Shown here: positions 20,674-30,002 of the stretch, in pieces
How positions within the stretch are numbered: the stretch's first letter is position 1
Layout: every line of letters begins with the position of its first letter
Translations under genes and position numbers: made by a program
The notes under the pieces: model-generated
What the model was told of the DNA's origin: nothing
The model's database searches: none
What the model saw: only the letters and a program-made list of their open reading frames with translations
From: a virus
Virus record (IMG/VR): IMGVR_UViG_3300034120_002102
Location: 1-34,557 of that record
DNA length: 34,557 nucleotides
Reading direction: 5' to 3' (one strand)

Positions 20674-20823
20674 ATGACGATTCAAGTACAGAACACGATT
20701 CGCAACCTCGTTGCTCGCCACGGTTATTCTGCTACATTTGTTCAGCATATGGGTGAGGGTATCTGCCTGTACAGTATCGGCGGTATCATGTATCGTATTC
20801 GTGGGGATGGTACGATTCTCTAA
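20674..20823 (+). CDS. Small hypothetical protein
   Basis: A 49-aa protein (starts MTIQVQNTIRNL), ribosome site AGAAGGA. The frame is open to 20641, but that would start inside the -10 box, so the ATG at 20674 is chosen. Helical N-terminus and a beta-like C-terminus (ICLYSIGGIMYRIRGDG). Not recognised. Confidence 0.7.
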   Translation: MTIQVQNTIRNLVARHGYSATFVQHMGEGICLYSIGGIMYRIRGDGTIL

Positions 20824-20855
20824 AAGTTTACTAAATGACATAACGGCAGACAATA

Positions 20856-20953
20856 TGCCAAAATGGCAGGCCGCGGGCGCCATCTGCCAAAATGGCAGGC
20901 GCTGCAAATCTTGTGCCAAACTCTAGCATAGCAAATATCATGCCAAAGAAAAT
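20856..20953. repeat. Early repeat array R1 (four arms, two degenerate)
   Basis: Perfect TGCCAAAATGGCA arms at 20856 and 20885, spacer GGCCGCGGGCGCCATC, then half-preserved arms at 20914 (TGCCAAACTCTAG) and 20941 (TGCCAAAGAAAAT). The period is 29, 29 and 27 bp. The last arm ends 25 bp before the -35 box of the next promoter. Confidence 0.9.
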
Positions 20954-20978
20954 ATTTTTTATCTACGATTTTTTTTAG

Positions 20979-21006
20979 TTGACATTCAAGTATGCCTATG
21001 TATAAT
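20979..21006 (+). promoter_or_regulatory. Early promoter
   Basis: TTGACA, 16 bp, TATAAT. The spacer lacks CCGATA, but GTCGATATAAG follows the -10 box. Confidence 0.85.
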
Positions 21007-21040
21007 GTCGATATAAGAGAAAAGGAAAGAGAGAATTGAA

Positions 21041-21178
21041 ATGAGAATGATTGAAGTGATTACGTCCGATTGCTGTGGTGATGAAATTAGGGGTTATGAT
21101 ATTTGTGCGTGCTGCCTTGAGCATTGTACCCCTATTCTGGAATATGTTTCCGATCCTACCGATCCCGATAGCAACTAA
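21041..21178 (+). CDS. Cys-rich zinc-ribbon-like miniprotein
   Basis: A 45-aa protein with cysteines at 11, 12, 22, 24, 25 and 29 plus H28 (CC, CACC, HC), consistent with a small metal site. The C-terminus is acidic (DPTDPDSN). Good ribosome site (AAAGAGAG). First gene of a three-gene unit. Function unknown. Confidence 0.7.
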   Translation: MRMIEVITSDCCGDEIRGYDICACCLEHCTPILEYVSDPTDPDSN

Positions 21179-21203
21179 CCCTAGAAAGAAAGAGAATACT
21201 ACA

Positions 21204-21419
21204 ATGGTCAGCGTGAATGATATGGTAGTTGTCGATCATAAGAATGGTAAAAAGTACGATGGTCGAGTTGTTCTGGTTCGTGAGTTGCCCAAGGGACATA
21301 TGTTCACTGTGGCTATGAAGCATTATCCTACAGGCACGATGAAGTATCGTAGTCTGTATCTTGAAGATTGTGTTTCGTGTTTGAAGTTGGAAGATTCCGG
21401 CTTTGTGTCTGCTACCTAA
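21204..21419 (+). CDS. Small barrel-like protein, paralogue of 20214-20402
   Basis: A 71-aa protein from the ATG at 21204 (AAAGAGA ribosome site). Shares the 'NGK.Y.G.VV.V.EL' and 'SLYLEDCVS' pattern with the 62-aa protein about 1 kb upstream, so the pair arose by duplication within the early region. The open frame extends further upstream but through the previous gene. Function unknown. Confidence 0.75.
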   Translation: MVSVNDMVVVDHKNGKKYDGRVVLVRELPKGHMFTVAMKHYPTGTMKYRSLYLEDCVSCLKLEDSGFVSAT

Positions 21420-21481
21420 CTAGGGGGGTTGAAAGGTAGTCTATAGGTTTCTACAATCCATCATCCTTTGGAGAAAAATAA

Positions 21482-21817
21482 ATGAGTAAGCCACAAATTC
21501 TGATTGATGCTGACCGTGTTATCCTGTCGTGCTTTGTTGGTATGGCTATTCCCCACCAGCCTAGTCTGGCCGATGGTGTGGTCGGGCCGATTAGGTCTGA
21601 AAAGATTCTCAAGTTCAATCGCAAGGCATTGAAAAGGATCAACAAGCATAAGGCTGAAAAGGTCGATCCTCGTTACAATGGTGGCGATGATACTATGATT
21701 ATCCCCGTTGGTAAGCCTGGTAGTGCTGAACGTAAAGAGGCTTTGGCACAGCAGTATGCTGCTATCATGGCTAGCGGTGAGGAAGTTAGCCCCTTCTCTT
21801 GGAGGGGTGATGACTAA
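21482..21817 (+). CDS. Hypothetical protein
   Basis: A 111-aa protein with a GGAGAAA ribosome site. Basic middle (KFNRKALKRINKHKAEKVDPRY) and a C-terminal 'ERKEALAQQYAAIMASGEEVSPFSWRGDD'. No domain recognised. An 8-bp hairpin (TAATAGTA/TACTATTA) begins at its stop codon. Confidence 0.75.
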   Translation: MSKPQILIDADRVILSCFVGMAIPHQPSLADGVVGPIRSEKILKFNRKALKRINKHKAEKVDPRYNGGDDTMIIPVGKPGSAERKEALAQQYAAIMASGEEVSPFSWRGDD

Positions 21818-21833
21818 TAGTAGTATACTATTA
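21815..21833 (+). other. Perfect 8-bp hairpin overlapping a stop codon
   Basis: TAATAGTA, loop GTA, TACTATTA, starting with the stop codon TAA. Only AT-rich pairs and no long U-run follow, so it is a weak terminator or an mRNA 3' end protector. Confidence 0.5.
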
Positions 21834-21882
21834 TTGTTACTATTCTGTTTTACTATTAGTTACATGGCCCTAAAAGGATAAC

Positions 21883-21953
21883 TGCCAAAATGGCAGGCGG
21901 GGCGGCCGGGCTGCCAAAATGGCAGGCAGTGCAAATGTTGTGCCACAAAAAAT
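21883..21953. repeat. Early repeat array R2 (three arms)
   Basis: TGCCAAAATGGCA at 21883 and 21912 with spacer GGCGGGGCGGCCGGGC, and a degenerate arm at 21941 (TGCCACAAAAAAT), exactly 29 bp apart. The last arm ends 24 bp before the -35 box. Confidence 0.9.
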
Positions 21954-21977
21954 AATTTTTGCCGCTAATTTTTTTAG

Positions 21978-22005
21978 TTGACATTGCCGATACCTAATGT
22001 AGAAT
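21978..22005 (+). promoter_or_regulatory. Early promoter with CCGATA spacer
   Basis: TTGACA, 16-bp spacer TTGCCGATACCTAATG, TAGAAT. Confidence 0.85.
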
Positions 22006-22031
22006 CAGGGCATCACAACGGAGAAAAGATC

Positions 22032-22232
22032 ATGTTTCACGATTTCGATCAAGTGAACGCTGTTCTTAACGCTATGGCCGACGAGGGCATGATCGAGCCG
22101 ATGGTCGAGCCGATTGATGATTCGTCCGTGGAAGTGAATTTTTGGGATTGGGCAGATGTTGTGGGCGTTGTGGAAGAATTCGAGCCGCAGGAAATGGTTG
22201 ACGACAGCGGCGAAGTATGGTACGTTAGTTGA
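22032..22232 (+). CDS. Small acidic protein
   Basis: A 66-aa protein starting MFHDFDQVNAVLNAMADEGM; the upstream in-frame ATG lies in the promoter and is rejected. Strongly acidic (many Asp/Glu, no Lys or Arg seen). First gene of a four-gene unit with the very acidic 87-aa protein. Not recognised. Confidence 0.7.
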   Translation: MFHDFDQVNAVLNAMADEGMIEPMVEPIDDSSVEVNFWDWADVVGVVEEFEPQEMVDDSGEVWYVS

Positions 22233-22245
22233 AAAGGAACAAGTC

Positions 22246-22509
22246 ATGAGTCACCCTGATCCATTGTTTGATCCCGATAACGCTATGGAGGATGATATGA
22301 ATTACGACGATTATAATGATTTTTACGGTGAGCCGTTGGATGATGATGTTGAGATTGTGGATTGGTATGATGATGAAGATGATAGTATGGACGGCGACCA
22401 TGATTCCGCGATGACTTCTGCGGGATGGGGAACCGATGAGGATTACGGTTATTATGGGGATGATTATGATGATACTCCCATGAGCGACGATTACTATGGT
22501 GGTGAGTGA
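22246..22509 (+). CDS. Extremely acidic, Lys/Arg-free protein (possible DNA mimic)
   Basis: An 87-aa protein with 33 Asp/Glu residues (27 Asp, 6 Glu) and no Lys or Arg, interspersed with Tyr and Trp (DDYNDFYG, DWYDDEDD, YYGDDYDD). AAAGGAAC ribosome site, 13 nt after the previous gene. Phage proteins of this character include DNA mimics that block host restriction or nucleoid proteins. Here that is only an inference from composition. Low complexity means it may alternatively be a disordered protein-binding tail. Confidence 0.75.
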   Translation: MSHPDPLFDPDNAMEDDMNYDDYNDFYGEPLDDDVEIVDWYDDEDDSMDGDHDSAMTSAGWGTDEDYGYYGDDYDDTPMSDDYYGGE

Positions 22510-22799
22510 ATACTAAACAAATCAAAAATTGGATCGATTCTTACTTTACTAACAGGAATAATAAGATGATGAAGGTTATTGTAACGCATACTGATACTTT
22601 TGGTGGTGAGCCTAATTATGGTTGGGTGAATCGGCACGAGTTTACTATTAGTCGCTCGGCTGCTCAACACAATATCACTCGACAGGCTAAGGCTTTGGCC
22701 GGTATGACGGGTGTAAAGGCTGATACGTTCGATTATGATACTGGCCTTACTATCAAGCCTCGCGGTTATCATCAGGTTATTTTTGTGGATTTTGAGTGA
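22506..22799 (+). CDS. Hypothetical protein
   Basis: A 97-aa protein if started at the GTG at 22506, which overlaps the preceding stop (GTGA). The alternative ATG at 22566 has an AGGAATA ribosome site and gives 77 aa. The core 'VIVTHTDTFGGEPNYGWVNRHEFTI...QAKALAGMTGVKADTFDYDTGLTIKPRGYHQVIFVDFE' looks like a compact alpha/beta domain typical of phage early proteins of unknown function. Confidence 0.7.
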   Translation: MNTKQIKNWIDSYFTNRNNKMMKVIVTHTDTFGGEPNYGWVNRHEFTISRSAAQHNITRQAKALAGMTGVKADTFDYDTGLTIKPRGYHQVIFVDFE

Positions 22800-22802
22800 G
22801 TT

Positions 22803-22943
22803 ATGAAAAAGAAAAAGATTAGTAATTATCAAAAAGCCTTGGAACGAATGAATCGGGAAACCAATAGAGCGATTGCTCACGTTGAAAATCTAAGTAAACT
22901 TTATAATGAAATGATAAAGGAAAAGGTGGCCGCAAAAAAGTAA
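22803..22943 (+). CDS. Small basic helical protein
   Basis: A 46-aa protein, mostly helical and Lys-rich (starts MKKKKISNYQKALERMN). It follows the previous stop by 3 nt. Its stop is directly followed by repeat array R3. Not recognised. Confidence 0.6.
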   Translation: MKKKKISNYQKALERMNRETNRAIAHVENLSKLYNEMIKEKVAAKK

Positions 22944-22944
22944 C

Positions 22945-22986
22945 TGCCAAAATGGCAGGCGGGCCGCGGCGACTGCCAAAATGGCA
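22945..22986. repeat. Early repeat array R3
   Basis: Two TGCCAAAATGGCA arms, 29-bp period, spacer GGCGGGCCGCGGCGAC. Starts 1 nt after a stop codon; ends 26 bp before the next -35 box. Confidence 0.9.
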
Positions 22987-23012
22987 GGCAAAGATTTTAG
23001 GCATTTTTTTAT

Positions 23013-23040
23013 TTGACTTCTCAAGTTTGATGAGTAAAAT
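23013..23040 (+). promoter_or_regulatory. Early promoter
   Basis: TTGACT, 16 bp, TAAAAT; ACCGATATAA follows directly downstream of the -10 box instead of lying in the spacer. Confidence 0.7.
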
Positions 23041-23068
23041 ACCGATATAAAGGAAAGAGGAAAAACAA

Positions 23069-23275
23069 ATGAACGCTTCGACTACCGATGTTGTGATTCA
23101 TGCTACCACTATGAGTGGTAAGAAAGTTACTGTTAAGAGTTTCGATGTTATCATTCAAAAGGTAGGCATACTCCCGCATAGTGGCCAACCTTTGATTGTG
23201 TTTTTTGTTGTTGACGAAAACGGCCAGCACGGTATCTTCAATCAGAACGAACTCACTAACTATACGGAGCGTTGA
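23069..23275 (+). CDS. Small hypothetical protein
   Basis: A 68-aa beta-rich protein (VTVKSFDVIIQKVGI, LIVFFVVDENGQHGIFN) with an AGAGGAAA ribosome site. Its stop lies 2 nt before the next ATG. Not recognised. Confidence 0.7.
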   Translation: MNASTTDVVIHATTMSGKKVTVKSFDVIIQKVGILPHSGQPLIVFFVVDENGQHGIFNQNELTNYTER

Positions 23276-23277
23276 AA

Positions 23278-23595
23278 ATGATTCATTCCGAAGCGGTATC
23301 TATGGTTCGTGGCAAGCGTAATGCTAATCGTCGCAAGGTTGGAAACAATACCTACGCTGAAATTCTGAGCGATGGTAGCGTGGGGATTATGCTGCACAGT
23401 ACCTACGTTGTGAAGATTCATCCAGACAATACCTACACTCTGAATAGTGGTGGATGGCAGACTCTGACCACTAAGGATAGAATCAACCAGTATAGTCCGC
23501 GATATGTTTACCAGAAGAATTTTGAGTGGTTTGTAAAGATTGACGACAAGAGTTATCCTTTCATGGATGGTATGGTGGTGGGTTGTCCCACCTAA
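23278..23595 (+). CDS. Conserved-type phage early protein ('GGWQT' pattern)
   Basis: A 105-aa protein from the ATG at 23278. The core 'GDGSV/LHSTYVVKI...TLNSGGWQTLTTKDRINQY' is a pattern I recall from small proteins of unrelated phages, in which a Gly-Gly-Trp turn follows short strands. No function is known. The basic N-terminal part is VRGKRNANRRK. Its stop codon is inside the S1 element. Confidence 0.7.
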   Translation: MIHSEAVSMVRGKRNANRRKVGNNTYAEILSDGSVGIMLHSTYVVKIHPDNTYTLNSGGWQTLTTKDRINQYSPRYVYQKNFEWFVKIDDKSYPFMDGMVVGCPT

Positions 23596-23635
23596 CCCTA
23601 CGGGTTTGGATGTGGTGGATGTAGTCAGCGAAAAA
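23591..23635 (+). repeat. Dispersed 45-nt element S1
   Basis: CCTAACCC TAC GGGTTTGG hairpin followed by a conserved GTAGTCAGCGAAAAA tail. Compared with S2, the stem has a paired change (AATCC/GGATT to AACCC/GGGTT), which keeps the pairing. Confidence 0.65.
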
Positions 23636-23660
23636 ACTAAACTAAAGAAAGGGAACACGG

Positions 23661-23759
23661 ATGTTCGATATAAATTGGGTGAGTGTGAGTGTGGGATTTA
23701 TTGTTGGCATTTTTGGTTCTTATCTTGTTCATGATCTTGTTTTTCCAGTAAAGGAATGA
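23661..23759 (+). CDS. Tiny membrane protein
   Basis: A 32-aa protein with one transmembrane segment (WVSVSVGFIVGIFGSYLV). AAAGGGA ribosome site 6 nt upstream. Function unknown. Confidence 0.55.
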   Translation: MFDINWVSVSVGFIVGIFGSYLVHDLVFPVKE

Positions 23760-23760
23760 T

Positions 23761-23838
23761 ATGAATAATAAAGAGAAGATGATTTTTATTTTTATGTGCT
23801 TTATCACTGGTTGTATTGTAACCTATTTGATTAACTAA
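23761..23838 (+). CDS. Tiny membrane protein
   Basis: A 25-aa protein with a hydrophobic helix (MIFIFMCFITGCIVTYLI), AAGGA ribosome site, 1 nt after the previous stop. The pair may act together in the membrane, or may be spurious given their size. Confidence 0.5.
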   Translation: MNNKEKMIFIFMCFITGCIVTYLIN

Positions 23839-23847
23839 TAATTAGCC

Positions 23848-23889
23848 TGCCAAAATGACAGATGGGCCGCGAAAACTGCCAAATTGACA
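23848..23889. repeat. Early repeat array R4
   Basis: Arms TGCCAAAATGACA and TGCCAAATTGACA, 29-bp period, spacer GATGGGCCGCGAAAAC (identical to that of R6). Ends 25 bp before the -35 box. Confidence 0.9.
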
Positions 23890-23914
23890 GGAATTTTTTT
23901 TCTAAAGCGGCGGC

Positions 23915-23942
23915 TTGACAAGTGTCGATAATAGAGTATACT
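23915..23942 (+). promoter_or_regulatory. Early promoter with TCGATA spacer
   Basis: TTGACA, 16-bp spacer AGTGTCGATAATAGAG, TATACT. Confidence 0.85.
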
Positions 23943-23978
23943 GGTGGAAAAGGTTTTCAATAACGAAAGGGTTTGATA

Positions 23979-24389
23979 ATGAACGATATGGTTTATATTG
24001 GTATTGCTGCTGTTGCTGGTATTGCTGCTTTGCTGTTTATTCTCGCTTTGAATGTTTACAACGGCATTCATGGTAGTCTTAGCACTGCTAAGGTTGGTGA
24101 AGTATATAATTTTGACTATGAGCAGCCTTTTCATGGTGAGCGTCAAAGGATTCTTGCTAAGGTTATTGAGCCTGTTTATACGTTGAGCGATGAGACTATT
24201 AGAAAGTTGGATCGTACTAGCAGTTATCGTCGTCACGATTCAATCTTTAAGCGTACTCATCATCTGGTAACTTGCCAGACGTTTGATGGTAAGATTCGAC
24301 AGTTTTATGCTGAACGTGCTACTAATGTTCGTCGATTTCCTATGGGGGATGTATTGATGAAGACCGGCTTGGCCAGCCTCCTCTTTTGA
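23979..24389 (+). CDS. Membrane-anchored early protein
   Basis: A 136-aa protein from the ATG at 23979 (GAAAGG ribosome site). Residues ~5-27 form a transmembrane helix (VYIGIAAVAGIAALLFILAL). The rest is a soluble domain with 'VGEVYNFDYEQPFHGERQRILAKV', 'SSYRRHDSIFKRTHHLVTC' and 'RQFYAERATNVRRF'. The pattern is familiar from hypothetical phage proteins, but no function is known. The N-terminal helix places it at the inner membrane. Confidence 0.7.
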   Translation: MNDMVYIGIAAVAGIAALLFILALNVYNGIHGSLSTAKVGEVYNFDYEQPFHGERQRILAKVIEPVYTLSDETIRKLDRTSSYRRHDSIFKRTHHLVTCQTFDGKIRQFYAERATNVRRFPMGDVLMKTGLASLLF

Positions 24390-24398
24390 GGGGGTTTT
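24377..24398 (+). terminator. Terminator overlapping the end of the membrane-protein gene
   Basis: CCTCCTC, loop TTTT, GAGGGGG, then TTTT. The stop codon lies in the loop region. It comes before array R5, so the array is not needed as the terminator here. Confidence 0.65.
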
Positions 24399-24402
24399 GG
24401 CC

Positions 24403-24444
24403 TGCCAAATTGGCAGCCGGGCCGCGAAAACTGCCAAAATGGCA
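24403..24444. repeat. Early repeat array R5
   Basis: Arms TGCCAAATTGGCA and TGCCAAAATGGCA, 29-bp period, spacer GCCGGGCCGCGAAAAC. Ends 24 bp before the -35 box. Confidence 0.9.
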
Positions 24445-24468
24445 GTTATTTTTTTCGACAAATTTTTC

Positions 24469-24496
24469 TTGACAAGATGCCGATAATCCATATAAT
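24469..24496 (+). promoter_or_regulatory. Early promoter with CCGATA spacer
   Basis: TTGACA, 16-bp spacer AGATGCCGATAATCCA, TATAAT. Confidence 0.9.
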
Positions 24497-24548
24497 GAGG
24501 CTTACATAAGGGATGATCAACTAATCTCAAAGATAATGGAAAACGATA

Positions 24549-24998
24549 ATGTTTACGCTGAAGCACATGAATCGGGTTTTGGGGGAAATCAAGGGACTGA
24601 GCAGCAAAAGTGTGTTTTCTCTGCGAAAGAGCCGTTTGTCCTATAGTCTGTCTCGACTGAACAATCAGCATCGTGGTGCTATTGTGGAGAAGATGATTAG
24701 GGATAAGTTGATTATGCAAGGTCGGAGGGTCAAGTATATCGGGGGAACCAATCCTTTTGATATGCTGGTTGATGGTCAACGTGTTGAAGTCAAGTCTTCT
24801 CTGGCTCGTCAGTTGCCTAGTGGTCGGCATTTTTATCAGTTCCAGAATATCAAGACTAAGAATTTTGATAAGATTGTTTTGGTCTATATTACCCCCAATG
24901 GTGTGAAGACTAAGACTTTCACCAAAAAGACTATGATGAAGAAACTTCGCCGGAATAAGTATTATTCTAACGGAAAGACTCTTGCGGGTGCGGCCTAA
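24549..24998 (+). CDS. PD-(D/E)XK nuclease-like protein
   Basis: A 149-aa protein. 'GAIVEKMIRDKLIMQG' (E47) followed by 'GGTNPFDMLVDGQRVEVKSS' gives the D71...E80-V81-K82 active-site pattern of the restriction-endonuclease-like fold. A conserved 'YQFQNIKTKNFDKIVLVYI' strand follows. The N-terminal ~40 residues are basic (SLRKSRLSYSLSRLNNQ) and may bind DNA. Possible roles are host DNA degradation, recombination or Holliday-type cleavage; the sequence does not decide. The ribosome site is weak (GGAAAAC). Confidence 0.75.
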   Translation: MFTLKHMNRVLGEIKGLSSKSVFSLRKSRLSYSLSRLNNQHRGAIVEKMIRDKLIMQGRRVKYIGGTNPFDMLVDGQRVEVKSSLARQLPSGRHFYQFQNIKTKNFDKIVLVYITPNGVKTKTFTKKTMMKKLRRNKYYSNGKTLAGAA

Positions 24999-25009
24999 AT
25001 TTTGTGCTC

Positions 25010-25038
25010 TTGACAACCGATAAAAGATAGTGTAGACT
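25010..25038 (+). promoter_or_regulatory. Early promoter with CCGATA spacer, no repeat array
   Basis: TTGACA, 17-bp spacer beginning ACCGATAAAAG, TAGACT. It starts 11 nt after the nuclease stop codon with no repeat array. Confidence 0.7.
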
Positions 25039-25059
25039 AGACCAAAGAGGAGAAAAACA

Positions 25060-25275
25060 ATGACTCGTAATCATACAATTCGTGACGAGATTGCTAGTAT
25101 CATGATGGAGTATGCTACTCTGGTTTGTGCTGTGGCTGAGACTCCTAGTACCAATAAGGCTGTGCATAAGATCAAGTTTGATACGGTGTTGGAGTTGAAA
25201 GAGACTACTACAAGTTTGATTATGAAAAAGTTGAATGAGCAAAAGCATAGTGCCGTGTGTGGTAGTTCTAACTAA
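25060..25275 (+). CDS. Small helical protein
   Basis: A 71-aa, mostly helical protein with a strong GAGGAGAA ribosome site. Hydrophobic heptads (IRDEIASIMMEYATLVCAVAE; LELKETTTSLIMKKLNE) suggest a helical hairpin. Not recognised. Confidence 0.7.
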   Translation: MTRNHTIRDEIASIMMEYATLVCAVAETPSTNKAVHKIKFDTVLELKETTTSLIMKKLNEQKHSAVCGSSN

Positions 25276-25287
25276 AGGGTAAAAATA

Positions 25288-25329
25288 TGCCAAAGTGGCA
25301 GATGGGCCGCGAAAACTGCCAAAATGACA
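25288..25329. repeat. Early repeat array R6
   Basis: Arms TGCCAAAGTGGCA and TGCCAAAATGACA, 29-bp period, spacer GATGGGCCGCGAAAAC. Ends 25 bp before the -35 box. Confidence 0.9.
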
Positions 25330-25354
25330 GAAAAATTTTTGTGGATTTTTTTAG

Positions 25355-25382
25355 TTGACAGGCCGATACTACATAGTAGAAT
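25355..25382 (+). promoter_or_regulatory. Early promoter with CCGATA spacer (drives ncRNA A)
   Basis: TTGACA, 16-bp spacer GGCCGATACTACATAG, TAGAAT. The next 470 bp contain no convincing gene. Confidence 0.85.
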
Positions 25383-25389
25383 GATTACA

Positions 25390-25569
25390 GAACAAGTGAA
25401 AACTTGTTGGCTATGTCGGGCCGAGTAGCCGGTAAAAACGGTAGTTGATGTCCTAGGAAACGTCTTCTACAATCGGTCCTAATGATATAAACTTTCGTGG
25501 GTCCATGCTCAGGGACTAGGTTGGGATAAGCCATTATGATAAACCCCGCATGTCTCGGCAGAGATGGGG
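25390..25569 (+). ncRNA. Candidate structured non-coding RNA A
   Basis: About 180 nt after a complete promoter. Visible stems in order: AACAAGT-GAAA-ACTTGTT (perfect 7 bp, GNRA tetraloop, 25391-25408); GGCTA...TAGCC (25409-25430); GTAG-TT-GATGT...ACGTC-TT-CTAC (a double stem with a symmetric TT/TT internal loop); GTCC...GGGAC; and a final AACCCC...GGGGTT with an inner TCTC-GGCA-GAGA. The last stem could end the RNA, but its downstream arm runs into the -35 of the next promoter. No ribosome site or open frame on the plus strand. Not tRNA, tmRNA or RNase P as far as I can tell. Confidence 0.55.
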
Positions 25570-25597
25570 TTGACAACGGGCTTATACGTTGTATAAT
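25570..25597 (+). promoter_or_regulatory. Promoter for ncRNA B
   Basis: TTGACA, 16-bp spacer ACGGGCTTATACGTTG, TATAAT. The TTG is shared with the last stem of RNA A. No CCGATA. Confidence 0.8.
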
Positions 25598-25598
25598 A

Positions 25599-25770
25599 AT
25601 GCCAATCTATGGGGGATGGCATCCTCACCACGACCAATACAACCAGTAACCGCTTGAATAGCAAGGTGATGAAATACTGATCATATTTCTAGGGACCAAT
25701 GTCGTGGGCGGTTTCCACTAGTTTTTACCTGGCCCAAGGGTTAAAAATATCGGGTACTAGATTGGATTAT
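25599..25770 (+). ncRNA. Candidate structured non-coding RNA B
   Basis: Visible pairing: ATGCCA...TGGCAT at the 5' end (25599-25622); a long-range stem CCACGAC (25628-25634) with GTCGTGG (25701-25707); inside it CAGTA (25644-25648) with TACTG (25675-25679), enclosing CTTG-AATAG-CAAG (25653-25665). AACCGC/GCGGTT is an alternative to part of this fold. Nesting of several stems without an open frame supports an RNA product. Function unknown. Confidence 0.5.
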
Positions 25771-25771
25771 A

Positions 25772-25805
25772 GAATCGGGGCGTAAAAGATTCGCTGGTTT
25801 TTTCT
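25772..25805 (+). terminator. Possible terminator after ncRNA B
   Basis: GAATC...GATTC short stem, followed after GCTGG by TTTTTTCTT. The stem is only 5 bp, so this is tentative. Confidence 0.4.
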
Positions 25806-25807
25806 TA

Positions 25808-25835
25808 TTGACATGACGATAAAGAATGGTATAAT
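25808..25835 (+). promoter_or_regulatory. Early promoter with ACGATA spacer
   Basis: TTGACA, 16-bp spacer TGACGATAAAGAATGG, TATAAT; drives a five-gene unit. No repeat array upstream. Confidence 0.85.
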
Positions 25836-25853
25836 GGTGGAAAAGGAGAAAAA

Positions 25854-26078
25854 ATGACTGTATCTGAACTTATTGAGCAGTTGAAGAATTATCCGTCCGA
25901 TATGAGGGTATTGACTCTTGGGTATGAGGGTGGGTATAATGATACCGAACTCAAGACCGAAGAGATTGTGTTCAACTTCTCTAAAAATGATGCTTGGTAT
26001 TACGGGCCTCATGAATGTGTGAAGTATACCGATACTGATACTGGTACAAAGTGTTTGGTAGTTGTGAGGGGAAAATGA
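25854..26078 (+). CDS. Conserved-type phage protein ('ELIEQLKNYP')
   Basis: A 74-aa protein with an AAGGAGAA ribosome site. Its pattern 'VSELIEQLKNYPSDMRVLTLGYEGGYND' is one I recall in many phage hypothetical proteins, a helix followed by strands and a Gly-Tyr-Glu-Gly-Gly turn. Function unknown. Coupled to the next gene by an ATGA overlap. Confidence 0.75.
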   Translation: MTVSELIEQLKNYPSDMRVLTLGYEGGYNDTELKTEEIVFNFSKNDAWYYGPHECVKYTDTDTGTKCLVVVRGK

Positions 26079-26200
26079 TCTATCTTAATCTTAATGAGAT
26101 TGAGCGATTGGCCGAAATCGTATCCGAACTGGTTAAGTTGGGTATGAGTGTTACTGCTGAACTCAAATATGATAGGTGGCAGATAGAGGTATACAAGTAA
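26075..26200 (+). CDS. Small hypothetical protein
   Basis: A 41-aa protein (MIYLNLNEIERLAEIVSEL...), helix then strand. ATGA overlap with the previous gene and TAATG overlap with the next. Not recognised. Confidence 0.65.
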   Translation: MIYLNLNEIERLAEIVSELVKLGMSVTAELKYDRWQIEVYK

Positions 26201-26517
26201 TGGAATGGAATAACTCTCATAAGAATCCACCAACTGAAGGCCAGAAGATTTATTACTTTGGGCCGCATATTGGTATCGGGATTGGACACTATTCTTATCA
26301 AGAGGACAGGGGATTCTTTCCATATCATTACGATGAAAATGGCTTGAAAGTTAATGAAGAAAAAAAGATAGACCTTTGCCCCCATATTTTCACTAACGAA
26401 AAATTTGGAGTTGTTGATGCTTGTGATGCTCCATTCTGGCTTCCTTACGACGAGGAACGAGCAAAGAGTTGGTGTCCGATTATTCCAGAAGAATATACTA
26501 AGGGGTTGTATGACTGA
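26200..26517 (+). CDS. DUF551-like protein
   Basis: A 105-aa protein from the ATG at 26200. 'W....KNPPTEGQKIYYFGPHIGIGIGHYSYQ' and 'FGVVDACDAPFWLPYD' follow the pattern of DUF551-type phage proteins (P-x-E-G-Q-x-V at the start, a Trp-x-Pro near the end). Function of the family is unknown. Assignment is from pattern memory. Confidence 0.65.
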   Translation: MEWNNSHKNPPTEGQKIYYFGPHIGIGIGHYSYQEDRGFFPYHYDENGLKVNEEKKIDLCPHIFTNEKFGVVDACDAPFWLPYDEERAKSWCPIIPEEYTKGLYD

Positions 26518-26683
26518 CGATAGAGACAAGGCTATGGTTTATCTGATTAATTTCTTTAAATCTCGTATGATGACGATGAGTAAACCTAATGTAGATAAGG
26601 CTAAAGAGTTGGTTAGTACTCATGAGATTGCGGTTTCTGAACTTATAGATAAGTATGTGAAATTAGTTTATGAAAACTCTTAG
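26510..26683 (+). CDS. Small helical protein
   Basis: A 57-aa, helical, amphipathic protein. Starts inside the end of the previous gene (8-nt overlap) with an AAGGGG ribosome site, and itself overlaps the next gene by 14 nt. Not recognised. Confidence 0.65.
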   Translation: MTDDRDKAMVYLINFFKSRMMTMSKPNVDKAKELVSTHEIAVSELIDKYVKLVYENS

Positions 26684-26795
26684 TGATATTTGTCCATGTG
26701 GAAAATGTGATATACTAGCATACAAGTATGATCATAACTATGGCATCTTATGGTATTTTTGTGCTGAATGCCATTGGTGGTATGTAGGTAACTAA
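26670..26795 (+). CDS. Zinc-ribbon miniprotein
   Basis: A 41-aa protein with CPCGKC (C8, C10, C13) and CAEC (C31, C34), the two knuckles of a zinc ribbon, with aromatic residues in the second half (WYFC, HWWYV). Last gene of its unit; its stop is followed after 1 nt by array R7. Confidence 0.7.
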   Translation: MKTLSDICPCGKCDILAYKYDHNYGILWYFCAECHWWYVGN

Positions 26796-26796
26796 C

Positions 26797-26838
26797 TGCC
26801 AAAATGGCGGCCGGGCCGCACCATCTGCCAAAATGGCA
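26797..26838. repeat. Early repeat array R7
   Basis: Arms TGCCAAAATGGCG and TGCCAAAATGGCA, 29-bp period, spacer GCCGGGCCGCACCATC, which begins like R5 and ends like R9/R10. Ends 25 bp before the -35 box. Confidence 0.9.
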
Positions 26839-26863
26839 TACCAAAATTTTTTAAATCTTTCTC

Positions 26864-26891
26864 TTGACCATTCCGATACTAATAGTATACT
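26864..26891 (+). promoter_or_regulatory. Early promoter with CCGATA spacer
   Basis: TTGACC, 16-bp spacer ATTCCGATACTAATAG, TATACT. Confidence 0.8.
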
Positions 26892-26901
26892 TAAGGGACA
26901 A

Positions 26902-26994
26902 GTGGATGCGGGCCGTTGGCAGAATGATATCAAAGAAGCCGCGGTTAAATGCAAAGCCGAGTATGGCATAACCCGATCCTCTTGTCTTTCCTAA
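26902..26994 (+). CDS. Possible 30-aa peptide (GTG start)
   Basis: AAGGGA lies 4 nt before a GTG that opens a 30-codon frame (V/M DAGRWQNDIKEAAVKCKAEYG...). The helical, charged composition looks protein-like, but this is the only support. The stop codon is part of the S2 element. Confidence 0.35.
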   Translation: MDAGRWQNDIKEAAVKCKAEYGITRSSCLS

Positions 26995-27034
26995 TCCTAC
27001 GGATTTGCCGGTCGTGCTGATAGTCAGCGAGAAA
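26990..27034 (+). repeat. Dispersed 45-nt element S2
   Basis: CCTAATCC TAC GGATTTGC hairpin, then GCTGA-TAG-TCAGC hairpin and GCGAGAAA. It lies 9 bp upstream of a promoter -35 box. Confidence 0.65.
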
Positions 27035-27043
27035 TTAAAGGTA

Positions 27044-27072
27044 TTGACAACGATTGGTCGATAAGGTATACT
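27044..27072 (+). promoter_or_regulatory. Promoter with TCGATA spacer, probably giving leaderless mRNA
   Basis: TTGACA, 17-bp spacer with GGTCGATAAGG, TATACT. The downstream ATG begins 6 nt after the -10 box, at the expected transcription start. Confidence 0.75.
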
Positions 27073-27078
27073 AGAGAC

Positions 27079-27504
27079 ATGAAAACAAAACAACCACACG
27101 GCGAAGTTCGCTTTCATTTGAGTACAGGCCAGCATTATATGCACTGGCAATTGAAAATTAAGCAAGGTGGCAAGACTGTGGAAGTTTGCTATTTTGATCC
27201 GTCTGAATATCAGTTAGAGATGCGGGGTTGTAAGTTGTGGAATAGGCCAAACAAGGCTAAACAGGTATTTGAGGCTGGTGTGCACGATGTTAGTGGATGG
27301 GTTCGTTGTGAAGAAGTGATGCTACGAAAAACTTTTTTTCCGAAATTGCCTGTTGACAATCTTGAGAAGTTATATTATAATCCGTTGAGAGATCCGCATT
27401 GGCGACGAGAAAGCGATAGCAACGAATTCATTTGGGATGGTAGTGAATACGCTACTTTACTGACTAACGGCAAACAAGTTTACATTTTGGAAGAAAGGGT
27501 TTGA
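27079..27504 (+). CDS. Hypothetical protein, apparently leaderless mRNA
   Basis: A 141-aa protein. 'LSTGQHYMHWQLKIKQGGKTVEVCYFDPSEYQLEMRGCKL' and 'FEAGVHDVSGWVRCEEV' suggest a beta-rich domain. The pattern is familiar from phage early genes but unnamed. No ribosome site precedes the ATG, which sits at the predicted transcription start. The next gene follows by 2 nt. Confidence 0.75.
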   Translation: MKTKQPHGEVRFHLSTGQHYMHWQLKIKQGGKTVEVCYFDPSEYQLEMRGCKLWNRPNKAKQVFEAGVHDVSGWVRCEEVMLRKTFFPKLPVDNLEKLYYNPLRDPHWRRESDSNEFIWDGSEYATLLTNGKQVYILEERV

Positions 27505-27506
27505 AT

Positions 27507-27890
27507 ATGATCAAGTTGGAACTGAGTGTTCGTGAGGCTATGCATCTGGCTACCAGTTGGGCGTACAATAATGATGTCGAACTGTATCATAAGATTGTTA
27601 ACTCTTTTGAACTGGCTCTGGGTGTAAACCAGAATCGTACCGTTACCATCACGAACGGAATGAATCTGGACAATCGCATCTCTTGTATCAAGGCTATTCG
27701 ACTCCACACCGGATGGGGCTTGAAGGAAAGCAAGGATTGGACGGATGCTCTGGTGGGCGGTTGGAAGTACGACAAGTTTGTTCCGGCATCTGCTGGTGCG
27801 AAGCAGAGTATTACTCTCAAGACTCCCGAAGCGGCTGAGAATCTGCTGCGTGATCTTGCTGGTTTGGGTTGTGAGGGTTATCTCTCATAA
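27507..27890 (+). CDS. Protein with ribosomal L7/L12 C-terminal-like domain
   Basis: A 127-aa protein. Residues 58-78 (ISCIKAIRLHTGWGLKESKDW) and ~100-127 (SITLKTPEAAENLLRDLAGLGCEGYLS) follow the L7/L12 C-terminal domain, where bacterial proteins read KIxVIKxVRxxTGLGLKEAKDLVD and later KEEAExxKKxLExAGAxVELK. That domain recruits translation factors to the ribosomal stalk. The N-terminal ~50 residues are not the L12 dimerisation domain. Phages are known to carry ribosomal-protein homologues including bL12, so a role in host ribosome take-over is plausible but inferred. The ATG has an AAAGGG ribosome site. Confidence 0.7.
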   Translation: MIKLELSVREAMHLATSWAYNNDVELYHKIVNSFELALGVNQNRTVTITNGMNLDNRISCIKAIRLHTGWGLKESKDWTDALVGGWKYDKFVPASAGAKQSITLKTPEAAENLLRDLAGLGCEGYLS

Positions 27891-27891
27891 C

Positions 27892-27933
27892 TGCCAAAAC
27901 GGCAGGCGCCGCGGCCAGCCTGCCAAAATGGCA
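27892..27933. repeat. Early repeat array R8
   Basis: Arms TGCCAAAACGGCA and TGCCAAAATGGCA, 29-bp period, spacer GGCGCCGCGGCCAGCC (inverted type). Starts 1 nt after a stop codon; ends 26 bp before the -35 box. Confidence 0.9.
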
Positions 27934-27959
27934 GAGCAAAAAATATTCACGAGACGCTG

Positions 27960-27987
27960 TTGACTAGCCGATACTCTATGGTATGAT
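27960..27987 (+). promoter_or_regulatory. Early promoter with CCGATA spacer
   Basis: TTGACT, 16-bp spacer AGCCGATACTCTATGG, TATGAT. It is followed only ~60 bp later by a second promoter, with no clear gene between. Confidence 0.8.
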
Positions 27988-28048
27988 GATAGCATCACAC
28001 GACAAGACGCCAAACGATCCCAACGCAAAGAAAAGTTCGGATTGGCTC

Positions 28049-28076
28049 TTGACAAGTGATGAGTGGTTTGTATAAT
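28049..28076 (+). promoter_or_regulatory. Second promoter of the 82-aa gene
   Basis: TTGACA, 16 bp, TATAAT, without CCGATA. Tandem with the promoter at 27960, so this gene may have one regulated and one constitutive start. Confidence 0.85.
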
Positions 28077-28117
28077 CTGTTTACTTGGTTGATAACACTA
28101 ACTTGGAAGGGTTTACT

Positions 28118-28366
28118 ATGAAGAAGTTTTCTTTTGTTGTTGATGTTGTTGCTGATGATCTTGATCGTGATGGTGTGGTAGAGTCGCTTCGTTCGTGCCT
28201 GAGTGATAGTCTGCCCGGTGACGTTCACGCTAACGTCAAGGCTGGCGAAGTCAAGAGTTTTAGCGAGCAGGGTTACAAGGTCTGGCGTGCTAGGGTCACT
28301 GGCGTGACTGCCGAGCAGGCTGGCGATGCTCACACCGGCAAGGTCGAGGTCGAGGCTGTTGCCTGA
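28118..28366 (+). CDS. Small hypothetical protein
   Basis: An 82-aa protein (starts MKKFSFVVDVVADDLDRDGVVESL), GGAAGGG ribosome site. A strand-helix-strand pattern with 'GYKVWRARVTGVTAEQAGD' near the end could be a ferredoxin-like fold. Higher G+C than its neighbours. Not recognised. Confidence 0.7.
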   Translation: MKKFSFVVDVVADDLDRDGVVESLRSCLSDSLPGDVHANVKAGEVKSFSEQGYKVWRARVTGVTAEQAGDAHTGKVEVEAVA

Positions 28367-28368
28367 AC

Positions 28369-28396
28369 TTGACAAACTGGACTATGCCAGTATAAA
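28369..28396 (+). promoter_or_regulatory. Promoter for ncRNA C
   Basis: TTGACA, 16-bp spacer AACTGGACTATGCCAG, TATAAA; followed by ~200 bp without a gene. Confidence 0.8.
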
Positions 28397-28403
28397 TAGA
28401 TTT

Positions 28404-28590
28404 TAGGCATAGTGCGGCGGGGTAAAACCCGCGTAATGATTGCTGGTATAAACCAGCCTAGTAGAGTCTAACCAACTAATAACCAGCGTGGTTGCTGGGA
28501 AGGGGTCTGCTACTAGTAATATAACGATGGTAAAGTGGCTCCACCATCAAACCGCATAGCCTCTATGGGACGCCATAGGGGCTTGCGGCA
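28404..28590 (+). ncRNA. Candidate structured non-coding RNA C, upstream of the tRNAs
   Basis: A series of clear stems: GCGGG-GTAAAA-CCCGC; GCTGGT-ATAA-ACCAGC; an outer CTAGTAG/CTACTAG enclosing CCAGC-GTGGTT-GCTGG; GATGG...CCATC; and a strong compound hairpin CCGC/GCGG around AGCC and CTATGG-GACG-CCATAG. No open frame with a ribosome site. It ends where the promoter of the tRNA-Arg gene begins. Large structured RNAs near phage tRNA clusters are known (for example GOLLD), but this one is much shorter and not recognisably related. Confidence 0.6.
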
Positions 28591-28611
28591 TTGAGTGGGT
28601 TCTGTTATAAT
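28583..28611 (+). promoter_or_regulatory. Possible promoter of tRNA-Arg/His/Asp
   Basis: TTGCGG, 17 bp, TATAAT, ending 8 bp before the tRNA-Arg. The -35 box is weak and overlaps the last hairpin of RNA C, so the tRNAs may alternatively be processed from the RNA C transcript. Confidence 0.55.
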
Positions 28612-28619
28612 ATCAACAC

Positions 28620-28691
28620 GGCCCTATAGTTAAATGGATATAACAACTGCCTTCTAAGCAGTTATTGGAGGTTCGATTCCTCCTGGGGCTA
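28620..28691 (+). tRNA. tRNA-Arg (anticodon TCT)
   Basis: 72-nt cloverleaf: acceptor GGCCCTA/TGGGGCT, D stem GTTA/TAAC, anticodon arm ACTGC-CTTCTAA-GCAGT, T arm GGAGG-TTCGATT-CCTCC. CCA not encoded. Reads AGA. Confidence 0.9.
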
Positions 28692-28693
28692 CT

Positions 28694-28766
28694 GTGGCTA
28701 TAACTCAATTGGTAGAGTAACAGGTTGTGATCCTGTTTGTTGTGGGTTCGAATCCCACTAGCCACC
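28694..28766 (+). tRNA. tRNA-His (anticodon GTG)
   Basis: Acceptor GTGGCTA/TAGCCAC, anticodon loop TTGTGAT in a CAGG/CCTG arm, T loop TTCGAAT, discriminator C as expected for tRNA-His. CCA not fully encoded. Two bases after tRNA-Arg. Confidence 0.9.
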
Positions 28767-28772
28767 CATTTA

Positions 28773-28846
28773 GGGAGCGTAGATCAATTGGTTAGATCGT
28801 TAGCCTGTCACGCTAAAGGTTGCGGGTTCAAGTCCCGTCGCTCTCG
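28773..28846 (+). tRNA. tRNA-Asp (anticodon GTC)
   Basis: Acceptor GGGAGCG/CGCTCTC, anticodon loop CTGTCAC in a TTAGC/GCTAA arm, T arm GCGGG-TTCAAGT-CCCGT, discriminator G. Array R9 begins 4 bp later. Confidence 0.9.
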
Positions 28847-28850
28847 CTTC

Positions 28851-28892
28851 TGCCAAAATGGCAGGCTCCGCGGCCCATCTGCCAAAATGGCA
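28851..28892. repeat. Early repeat array R9
   Basis: Two TGCCAAAATGGCA arms, 29-bp period, spacer GGCTCCGCGGCCCATC, whose end is the exact reverse complement of the start of the R4/R6 spacer (11 bp). Ends 26 bp before the -35 box. Confidence 0.9.
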
Positions 28893-28918
28893 TACGAAAT
28901 TCTTTCAAGTTTTTTCGT

Positions 28919-28946
28919 TTGACAAGCCGATACTCTAATGTAGAAT
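28919..28946 (+). promoter_or_regulatory. Early promoter with CCGATA spacer
   Basis: TTGACA, 16-bp spacer AGCCGATACTCTAATG, TAGAAT. Confidence 0.9.
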
Positions 28947-28967
28947 ACTGAGACACGGAGAACAAAG

Positions 28968-29678
28968 ATGAAAACTGCAAATGGTAATGATAAGTTGGGC
29001 AAGGAAAACTGCATAGTTGTTAGTCGCCCGGTTGGCGATACTTGCCCGCCCGATTGTGATTTTCTCGGCAATGGTTGCTATGCTGAGGACTTGGAAAATA
29101 TCTATCCGGGTGTTCGTCCCGCTGGTATGCAAAATCTTATCACGGAAAAAAATCGTATTCGTTCTATGCTTTTAGATGCTGTCAAGAAAAATAAAGATGT
29201 TCGCTGGCACGAGCGTGGCGACTTTTTCAAGGATGGCAAACTTGATAATGAGTACGTTGATAATGTATTGTGGGCTTGTGAGAGTATTCTTGCTAGTGGT
29301 GGTAGTCTGCCGACCATGTGGGCCTATACCCATATTTATGATACTCGACTGTCTCTTGAACTTGGCAAGTATATAAATATGTATGCTAGTATCCACGATG
29401 GTGAAGATATGAAACAAGCCAAAGCCGCTGGTTTCAAGCATTTCGCATGGTGTGATAGTGATACTAAGATTGCCCCCAAGCGTCCGCGTAGTAAGGCTAA
29501 GGCTGACGCATGGCGTAAAGCGTTGCCTAAACTGGTTGTGTTAGAGGGCGAAAAGTTTATTACTTGTCCGGAAATTCGTCGTGGTCGTGGTGTTGTGACT
29601 TGCACAAAAACCAAAAATAGCGTACATTGTGATTTGTGTCCGCGTGGCTTGGCTAATGTTCTTTTTCCTTCTCACTGA
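28968..29678 (+). CDS. Cys-motif phage protein, distantly Gp37/Gp68-like
   Basis: A 236-aa protein with a GGAGAA ribosome site. The N-terminal signature 'TCPPDCDFLGNGCYAE' (C26, C30, C37) and a C-terminal cluster 'CTKTKNSVHCDLCPRG' suggest one or two metal sites. In between, 'VRWHERGDFFKDG', 'MWAYTHIYD' and 'FKHFAWCDSD' give a barrel-like succession reminiscent of the Gp37/Gp68 (DUF5131-type) phage proteins, which have a related CxxxC...CYA signature. Function of those families is not established. The family link is tentative; the gene looks intact. Confidence 0.6.
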   Translation: MKTANGNDKLGKENCIVVSRPVGDTCPPDCDFLGNGCYAEDLENIYPGVRPAGMQNLITEKNRIRSMLLDAVKKNKDVRWHERGDFFKDGKLDNEYVDNVLWACESILASGGSLPTMWAYTHIYDTRLSLELGKYINMYASIHDGEDMKQAKAAGFKHFAWCDSDTKIAPKRPRSKAKADAWRKALPKLVVLEGEKFITCPEIRRGRGVVTCTKTKNSVHCDLCPRGLANVLFPSH

Positions 29679-29688
29679 GACTATTACA

Positions 29689-29922
29689 ATGAGTAAGTAT
29701 TATATTAAGTGTGGTAGTTTAGAGTTGATTTATTCTGCTCCTAATTCTAAGCCGGTTGAGGCTGCTCAAATTGCATTGTGGGAAACTAACCAGTTTGATG
29801 TATTAGATGAGTACTTTTATATTGATGAGCGTGGGTATAGAGATTATATTACTGCTGATAAAGAAACTAAGGTAATTAGTTTAAGTAAAGTGGCTAAGTT
29901 GGCGGGGTGGAAACTGGAGTAG
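29689..29922 (+). CDS. Hypothetical protein
   Basis: A 77-aa protein (starts MSKYYIKCGSLELIYSAP). 'EAAQIALWETNQFDVLDEYFYIDERGYRD' and 'VISLSKVAKLAGWKLE' look like a small alpha/beta domain. Weak ribosome site; 10 nt after the previous gene and probably co-transcribed. Its stop is 1 nt before array R10. Confidence 0.7.
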   Translation: MSKYYIKCGSLELIYSAPNSKPVEAAQIALWETNQFDVLDEYFYIDERGYRDYITADKETKVISLSKVAKLAGWKLE

Positions 29923-29923
29923 C

Positions 29924-29965
29924 TGCCAAAACGGCAGCCTCCGCGGCCCATCTGCCAAAAAGGCA
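29924..29965. repeat. Early repeat array R10
   Basis: Arms TGCCAAAACGGCA and TGCCAAAAAGGCA, 29-bp period, spacer GCCTCCGCGGCCCATC. Downstream the promoter is degenerate: CCGATA (29990-29995) is present only 24 bp after the array and no -35 box precedes it, as if ~10 bp had been deleted. Confidence 0.85.
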
Positions 29966-30002
29966 GACTAAAGTTCTAGCCATCGAAAGCCGATAAAAAA
30001 GT

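What the first reader, a model, noticed from the sequence alone, without database searches (positions are those of the whole stretch)
25355..25569. Candidate structured RNA A
A complete promoter drives ~180 nt with no gene. It shows a perfect 7-bp hairpin closed by GAAA, a double stem with symmetric TT/TT loop and a GC-rich final stem. The order and tightness of stems exceed what is expected in AT-rich phage spacers.
Basis: partly seen in the sequence, partly recalled or inferred. Interest (0 to 1): 0.6.

Follow-up and report, generated by a model that had tools for sequence, protein, structure and literature searches.

The report
Phage array of swappable structured RNAs
The short "candidate RNA" is the first bead of a chain of compact folded RNAs that large freshwater phages shuffle like cassettes next to their tRNA genes; these RNAs match no known RNA family and their job is unknown.

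Summary
Window 25355-25569 holds a promoter, one complete structured RNA cassette (M1, 25390-25481) and part of a second (M2, 25496-25632); a third (M3, 25643-25798) follows. The 3' limit was set by a promoter look-alike inside M2 that relatives do not keep while keeping the fold. M1 and M2 contain pseudoknots supported by covariation (M2: 24 of 43 pairs with two-sided changes; M1: 7 of 28). In 131 loci I found 116 arrays built from 29 provisional cassette families (8 seen in one or two loci only), joined by short A-rich linkers. There are 51 compositions among 87 untruncated arrays, in an almost fixed order, usually beside tRNA genes. All 20 large phage records tested carry the core. In the arrays searched Rfam 15 matched nothing but tRNAs; no annotated phage or plasmid record matched the array queries. 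Precedents are T4 RNAC/RNAD and ROOL/GOLLD, but membership was not met. Most likely it is an array of trans-acting stable phage RNAs; cassette turnover hints at, but does not show, a role against variable host factors.

The parts
25288..25331 (+). pair of CTGCCAAA-type palindromes just upstream of the array promoter; lineage-specific repeat, role unknown
   Evidence: family D3 copy at 25282-25340; sequence
25355..25382 (+). sigma-70-type promoter of the array, TTGACA-N16-TAGAAT
   Evidence: 11 of 12; M1 starts 8 nt after its -10 hexamer, as in 16 of 18 M1-headed arrays listed
25390..25481 (+). cassette M1 (92 nt): hairpin 25391-25408; pseudoknot 25409-25413/25426-25430 crossing 25418-25424/25473-25479; inner stem 25441-25444/25467-25470 and 25447-25451/25460-25464
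   Evidence: 28 loci; covariation
25482..25495 (+). linker M1-M2, AUGAUAUAAACUUU
25496..25632 (+). cassette M2 (137 nt), core of the array: closed multibranch domain with an internal pseudoknot
   Evidence: 103 loci; 24 of 43 pairs with two-sided change; model R1 match 146.6 bits, but the window sequence was in the training set
25570..25597 (+). promoter look-alike TTGACA-N16-TATAAT (12 of 12) inside an M2 hairpin; probably not a promoter
   Evidence: not kept in L010 and other M2 copies while pairing is kept
25633..25642 (+). linker M2-M3, ACCAAUACAA
25643..25798 (+). cassette M3 (156 nt): conserved closing helix and core with exchangeable arms
   Evidence: 101 loci; 6 of 16 consensus pairs with two-sided change
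25798..25803 (+). U-run after M3, possible transcription end; a minority feature (12 of 104 arrays)
25808..25835 (+). next promoter, TTGACA-N16-TATAAT, for the downstream gene
   Evidence: 12 of 12
25854..26078 (+). ORF of 74 aa downstream; N-terminus similar to phage families of unknown function
26904..26979 (+). cassette M4, here solitary; starts about 13 nt after promoter 26864-26891
26984..27040 (+). 57-nt two-hairpin element (D5) directly after M4; five copies in the window

Best explanation
Window 25355-25803 is a transcription unit for a modular noncoding RNA: three independently folding cassettes (M1-M2-M3) strung on short unpaired A-rich linkers. It is one example of a single-copy array that large freshwater phages build from a pool of about 29 provisional cassette families and recombine at the linkers. 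SHOWN by comparison: the cassettes, their structures (pseudoknots in M1 and M2), the linkers, the almost fixed order, the turnover of whole cassettes, and the promoter that places a structured cassette at the predicted 5' end. INFERRED: the RNA acts in trans as one or several stable structured RNAs, made alongside the phage tRNAs (as T4 RNAC and RNAD are), and binds host or phage proteins or ribosomes. INFERRED AND WEAKER: cassette turnover reflects changing host targets, for example host RNA-degrading or RNA-sensing defence proteins that individual cassettes occupy as decoys (about 0.25). Whether the chain is cut at the linkers is open.
For: Covariation: M2 24 of 43 pairs with two-sided changes (shuffle mean 12.6, 0 of 500 reach it; 98.1% of cells paired against 36-42% when slid), including a pseudoknot whose pair 37-118 is CG in 32 and GC in 18 of 50; several changes on a tree built without the pseudoknot and neighbouring helix columns (8 for 37-118, 10 for 39-138). 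M1 7 of 28 pairs. Of 14 families with at least 5 distinct sequences, 12 exceed all 200 shuffles. Arrays: 116 in 131 loci; 51 compositions in 87 untruncated arrays; M2 before M3 93 to 0; 23 pairs of loci with M3 at least 98% identical but different cassettes recorded (for pairs with L120, L123 or L139 this may be locus truncation). Linkers 49% A, 5% G; AATACAA in 178 of 309; mean unpaired probability 0.67 against 0.38 in cassettes, 89 arrays. Ends of cassettes pair with each other in 112 of 167 against 1075 of 4175 shuffles. Promoter of at least 10 of 12 within 250 nt upstream in 113 of 118 groups, a count that includes solitary M4 (no matched control). Core in 20 of 20 large phage records, at one locus in 19 (the 20th has it at both contig ends). 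tRNA within 5 kb downstream, same strand, in 45 of 47. Against a cis role for one gene: 60 of 104 arrays run directly into a ribosome-binding site and ORF, and those ORFs fall into at least 12 clusters without detectable similarity.
Against: No transcript was measured. 60 of 104 arrays run into an ORF without a U-run, so the array may be part of an mRNA. Solitary M4 sits at the predicted start of other transcripts (44 of 56), which fits a leader role for that cassette. M4 shows no two-sided change and one, M17 none above shuffles (53 of 200), and nested folding energy is near chance for M4, M9 and M14. Fifteen of 29 families have too few sequences to test, and eight rest on one or two loci. 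The RNase E consensus does not resemble the linker (recalled), so processing there is not implied. No host was identified. Nothing tests the decoy idea.
Confidence: 0.7

Rival explanations
1. One large multi-domain RNA that acts as a whole, like ROOL or GOLLD: the cassettes are domains held in a fixed order by tertiary contacts or oligomerisation, and the linkers are internal flexible segments.
For: Almost fixed domain order (M2 before M3 93 of 93), M2 and M3 together in 73 of 87 untruncated arrays, one locus in 19 of 20 genomes, phage origin near tRNAs. ROOL and GOLLD are phage or prophage RNAs near tRNA islands with disordered internal linkers (passages of PMC12286853).
Against: Each cassette tends to be closed by its own terminal helix (112 of 167); cassettes also occur alone (58 solitary M4) or on the other side of the core (N28-M5 before M2 in 12 and after in 6); no Rfam match.
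Confidence: 0.3
2. A 5' leader: the array stabilises, or controls translation of, the mRNA that follows, with the structured head cassette blocking 5'-end-dependent decay.
For: A head cassette begins at the predicted transcript start (8 nt after the -10 for M1 in 16 of 18, 13 nt for M4 in 20 of 23 array listings); 60 of 104 arrays run directly into an RBS and ORF; solitary M4 follows a promoter and is followed by element D5 (44 and 42 of 56).
Against: The ORFs that follow belong to at least 12 clusters without detectable similarity; in the window a U-run and a new consensus promoter separate the array from the gene; a leader needs neither up to eight different cassettes nor their turnover.
Confidence: 0.2
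3. Two separate short RNAs: RNA A (25389-25569) and a second RNA from the promoter at 25570.
For: A 12 of 12 promoter match at 25570-25597.
Against: That stretch is an M2 hairpin and pseudoknot strand with two-sided covariation; in L010 it reads TTGCCT...GATAGT and is no longer promoter-like although the fold is kept; M2 pairs 25496-25500 with 25628-25632 across the supposed boundary.
Confidence: 0.04
4. Chance folding of a spacer with no function.
Against: Conservation and covariation in M1 (15 rows) and M2 (50 rows).
Confidence: 0.01

Closest known systems
Bacteriophage T4 stable RNAs RNAC and RNAD (species 1 and 2)
   Same: Phage-encoded structured small RNAs of 139 and 119 nt beside the tRNA cluster (NC_000866 annotation); roles unknown (passages of PMC3014915, and PMC9697503). 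RNAC ends in a tRNA-like T arm (sequence), as do cassettes N21, N24, N27 and N28.
   Different: Two fixed RNAs, not a shuffled array; nhmmer found no family match to RNAC, and the one N26-RNAD match is weak and not reciprocal.
ROOL and GOLLD RNAs
   Same: Large phage or prophage RNAs of unknown function near tRNA islands; ROOL has multiple pseudoknots, GOLLD a conserved and a less conserved region and sometimes tRNAs in its linker (passages of PMC12286853).
   Different: No Rfam match; built from separately closed, exchangeable cassettes on repeated linkers; oligomerisation untested.
Phage tRNA arrays
   Same: Runs of compact RNAs with short spacers, cassettes gained and lost, tRNAs interleaved in some arrays.
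   Different: Most cassettes are not tRNAs by ARAGORN or Rfam; conserved order and linker.
Pistol ribozyme (RF02679), present in the same window
   Same: A pseudoknotted small RNA in the same region of the phage (pseudoknot recalled).
   Different: Self-cleaving ribozyme; no cassette in the ten loci matches its model.

Membership tests
Any Rfam 15 family | Covariance-model match to the M1-M2-M3 region | tested here: not met
   No match at E up to 10 in 25270-25860
Any Rfam 15 family | Match for the other cassettes | tested here: not met
   10 loci, 36,492 bases, E up to 0.5: six rows, four tRNA and two weak matches below gathering. One tRNA row (L036 5309-5408, 32.5 bits) overlaps the tRNA-like cassette N28. 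Families first seen later in other loci were not all searched at this threshold.
ROOL / GOLLD | Rfam covariance model | tested here: not met
   (that both families have Rfam models is from PMC12286853)
ROOL / GOLLD | RNA-only homo-oligomer cage | not testable with these tools
   needs cryo-EM or native gels
T4 RNAC / RNAD | Sequence homology to T4 RNAC | tested here: not met
   RNAC as query, best E 7 in 131 loci
T4 RNAC / RNAD | Sequence homology to RNAD | tested here: inconclusive
   N26 profile matches inside RNAD at E 6.7e-4 in 3 kb; a profile of seven RNAD copies finds no N26
T4 RNAC / RNAD | Location beside phage tRNA genes | tested here: met
   tRNA within 5 kb downstream, same strand, in 45 of 47 arrays with 5 kb held
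T4 RNAC / RNAD | Accumulates as a stable RNA during infection | not testable with these tools
   no expression data
tRNA | Full tRNA fold with anticodon | tested here: not met
   M1-M3 of the window are not called by ARAGORN or Rfam. N28 is tRNA-like: ARAGORN calls related copies tRNA-Gly with a 27-nt insert.

The most novel reading that the evidence does not exclude
The arrays are RNA-made counter-defence or host-takeover islands. Each cassette is a decoy or inhibitor of a different host factor (for example an anticodon nuclease, another RNase or an RNA-guided defence), and phages swap cassettes at the linkers as integrons swap gene cassettes: a combinatorial arsenal made of RNA instead of protein.
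Probability: 0.2. Interest if true: 0.97.

Novelty: categorically new. Interest (0 to 1): 0.85.

Why it matters
If the arrays are made as predicted, large phages carry a combinatorial set of structured RNAs that no family library or annotated phage record searched here contains. That would turn an isolated old puzzle (T4 RNAC and RNAD, roles still unknown) into a comparative problem with on the order of a hundred arrays, a conserved order and natural deletion variants. It would also supply a set of new pseudoknotted RNA folds for structure work, and a way to test whether phages use exchangeable RNAs, not only proteins, against their hosts.

Tried and rejected
Rfam at E up to 10 for the region: nothing. 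Annotated phages: window array, L025 array and L036 array at E up to 0.1: no match; N26 alone at E up to 10 gave two 19-20-base matches with E of 1 and 3, taken as chance; plasmids with the L031 array: no match. The tool warns that records near the window's own genome may be left out. Bacterial genomes: the M2 pattern hit one contig, a 4.6-kb piece of an alphaproteobacterial MAG, which looks like a misbinned phage piece (inference), so there is no evidence for mimicry of a host RNA at sequence level, for M2 only. LR756511 (595-kb uncultured phage with the best match to ORF 32264-33208): no M2 match.

T4 RNAD homology of cassette N26: the shared stretch (GAGA..CCGG.TCGCTA) is striking to the eye, but the reverse profile search failed; left as inconclusive. 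RNAC: no match. Terminator view: only 12 of 104 arrays have a U-run within 14 nt, so a built-in terminator is not general. L126 was a pattern hit without any cassette; 3 of 131 loci gave no family hit (128 did).

Caveats on counts: loci are cut where stored data end, so 29 of 116 arrays are within 200 nt of a locus end and were left out of the 87. The promoter count had no shuffled control. 131 loci are not 131 genomes: for example L013/L057, L024/L103, L038/L082, L040/L042, L086/L142, L090/L118 and L098/L134 lie on shared contigs. Four M2 rows with large deletions (L052, L065, L087, L096) were left out when A2 was aligned (54 listed, 50 used). For M3 the window row was put in for L074, and L065 was left out (48 listed, 47 used). 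To A1 I added L045 and L085, which were not in the list; the window row was added to A4.

Full report
WHAT WAS CLAIMED AND WHAT IS THERE. All are present. Energy alone does not make them special (z -1.13, 29 of 200 shuffles as stable). Comparison does. A neighbouring protein (24549-24995) led to two relatives, L009 (98% identical protein) and L010 (71%). In L010 the 'second promoter' of the window at 25570 reads TTGCCT...GATAGT, so it is not kept, while the surrounding sequence is.

FROM ONE RNA TO AN ARRAY. A pattern from the second conserved block hit 51 stretches of viral contigs. Reading their flanks showed separate blocks joined by linkers of the type ACAATACAA, present in different combinations and sometimes alternating with tRNAs. 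Scans with an 18-mer of block M4 (64 stretches) and an M3 pattern (69 stretches) enlarged the set to 131 loci, 1.22 Mb, window included. Profile searches gave 29 provisional cassette families; numbers of loci: M2 103, M3 101, M4 84, M18 37, M1 28, M9 19, M5 18, N28 18, others 1 to 11. Eight of them (M15, M16, N22, N23, N24, N25, N26, N29) rest on one or two loci and should be read as candidates. Of 116 arrays, 87 have at least 200 nt on both sides; these show 51 compositions of 1 to 8 cassettes; 78 hold M2, 82 hold M3 and 73 hold both. The order is strict for most pairs (M2 before M3 93 to 0; M1 before M2 27 to 0; M3 before M9 18 to 0), with exceptions such as the N28-M5 block, before M2 in 12 and after in 6, M7 (after M2 in 6, before in 3) and M6 (7 and 1).

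STRUCTURE. M1 (15 rows, 14 distinct): 28 pairs, 99.2% of cells paired, 7 pairs with two-sided change (shuffle mean 2.4; 0 of 500), 30.9-52.0% of cells paired when slid; it includes a pseudoknot 20-24/37-41 x 29-35/84-90. Helix 29-35/84-90 itself never varies and so gives no covariation support. M2 (50 rows): 43 pairs, 98.1% paired, 24 pairs and 185 cells with two-sided change (means 12.6 and 51.6; 0 of 500), slid versions 36.1-41.7% paired. The M2 pseudoknot 33-38/117-122 keeps 99.7% of cells, and pair 37-118 switches CG/GC 32 to 18; on a tree built without columns 33-44, 109-129 and 133-138 that pair changes at least 8 times; recombination could inflate such counts. M3 (47 rows): 6 of 16 RNAalifold pairs with two-sided change, with arms that are exchanged wholesale. 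M4 (20 rows): almost invariant, one pair with two-sided change and none in the subset, so its fold is unproved. Of 14 families testable by a simple shuffle, 12 exceed all 200 shuffles; M4 and M17 do not. This shuffle does not correct for relatedness, and 15 families had too few sequences.

ANATOMY OF THE UNIT. M1 starts 8 nt after the -10 hexamer in 16 of 18 M1-headed listings (one 9, one with the best-scoring site elsewhere); M4-headed arrays start 13 nt after it in 20 of 23. So a folded cassette lies at the predicted 5' end. Linkers are 49% A, 22% C, 5% G, 24% T (cassettes 28% G); 178 of 309 contain AATACAA; ACAATACAA occurs 67 times in 461 kb where base composition predicts 7.2. Linkers are mostly unpaired (0.67 against 0.38). 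First and last 14 nt of cassettes share at least 4 pairs in 112 of 167 sequences and 1075 of 4175 shuffles. After the last cassette 12 of 104 arrays show a U-run within 14 nt and 60 run into an RBS and ORF without one; the ORFs found form at least 12 clusters without detectable similarity.

DISTRIBUTION. Model R1 (M2) finds the core in 20 of 20 phage records of 152-244 kb: one place in 18, two adjacent copies in one, and both contig ends in one. The 20 were chosen because they held a cassette, so this shows copy number, not prevalence. No M2 in a 595-kb phage. No match in 50,697 annotated phage records with three array queries or in 72,556 plasmids with one. One bacterial MAG contig. The window phage is distant from known ones: its terminase is about 26% identical to that of Bacillus phage Slash over 70% of its length.

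MOSAICISM. 23 pairs of loci have M3 at least 98% identical yet different recorded cassettes. The clearest: L024 (M1-M2-M17-M3) and L027 (M5-M2-M3) with identical M3, and L072 (M4-M2-M11-M3-M9) against several M4-M2-M3-M9 arrays. Pairs with L120, L123 and L139 may reflect truncated loci.

WHAT IT MOST LIKELY DOES. A single-copy, tRNA-adjacent, promoter-driven array with independently closed, covarying, exchangeable domains, and different genes downstream, is best explained as a source of trans-acting stable RNA. Whether it works as separate RNAs or as one chain is open (0.3 for the second). A leader role is a real rival (0.2), strongest for M4, which also stands alone at the start of other transcripts (44 of 56 with a promoter, 42 of 56 followed by element D5). 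Exchange of whole cassettes at constant sites resembles loci under changing pressure, hence the decoy or counter-defence reading, which nothing here tests.

COMPARISON. T4 RNAC and RNAD are the nearest precedents: phage RNAs of unknown role (passages of PMC3014915; PMC9697503) next to tRNAs, RNAC with a tRNA-like T arm like several cassettes here. RNAD is found in 704 annotated records; neither is matched by Rfam at gathering. Homology was not met for RNAC and is inconclusive for RNAD. ROOL and GOLLD (passages of PMC12286853) share phage origin, tRNA proximity and elaborate folds but not the cassette plan. My novelty label concerns that plan, a shuffled array of many unrelated structured RNAs; single phage RNAs of this size are not new in kind. 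Literature searches whose listings did not show such arrays: (open-licence PMC only; preprints and most subscription papers are not held).

Noticed in passing
28376-28438 (+): Pistol ribozyme (51 bits, gathering 34.5) between the array and the tRNAs; also found in 3 of 12 related loci scanned (L068, L089, L047).
   Followed up: partly
20117-33338, many copies: Paired CTGCCAAAATGGCAG-type palindromes lie upstream of many promoters in the window (10 and 13 copies in families D1 and D2); possible operators or terminators. Some other phages of the group have different repeats in the same place.
   Followed up: no
23585, 26984, 30764, 33469, 33665 (starts): A 57-nt two-hairpin repeat (CCTAATCC..GGATT, then GCTGA..TCAGC) occurs five times in leaders or after a tRNA and follows solitary M4 in 42 of 56 loci.
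   Followed up: partly
window promoters, e.g. 25355, 28919, 30830, 32192: Many promoters share CCGATA in the spacer shortly after TTGACA (families D6 and D8), which suggests one phage-specific promoter class.
   Followed up: no
28620-31336: ARAGORN tRNAs; Rfam at gathering misses one of these (30866-30939) and adds one at 31265-31336.
   Followed up: no
L065 4926-5026, L087 9282-9382, L088 7361-7461 and other N28 copies: tRNA-like cassette N28 with T arm and acceptor-like ends but an enlarged middle; ARAGORN reads some as tRNA-Gly with a 27-nt insert.
   Followed up: partly
L064 6894-6968 (-), L040, L077, L121: After cassette M9, ARAGORN finds tRNAs with unusual anticodon loops (for example 'gaga' or two-letter calls).
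   Followed up: no
L018 3724-3826, L111 8142-8241: Cassette N26 shares a hairpin with loop UCGCUA and flanks with T4 RNAD; weak and not reciprocal.
   Followed up: partly
L104 (RFNS01000242.1): A contig binned as an alphaproteobacterial MAG from Lake Lanier carries M4, M3 and M2 and looks like a phage piece.
   Followed up: no
6417-7940 (-): Homing endonuclease-like ORF among the structural genes (PHROG 3339, E 3e-61).
   Followed up: no
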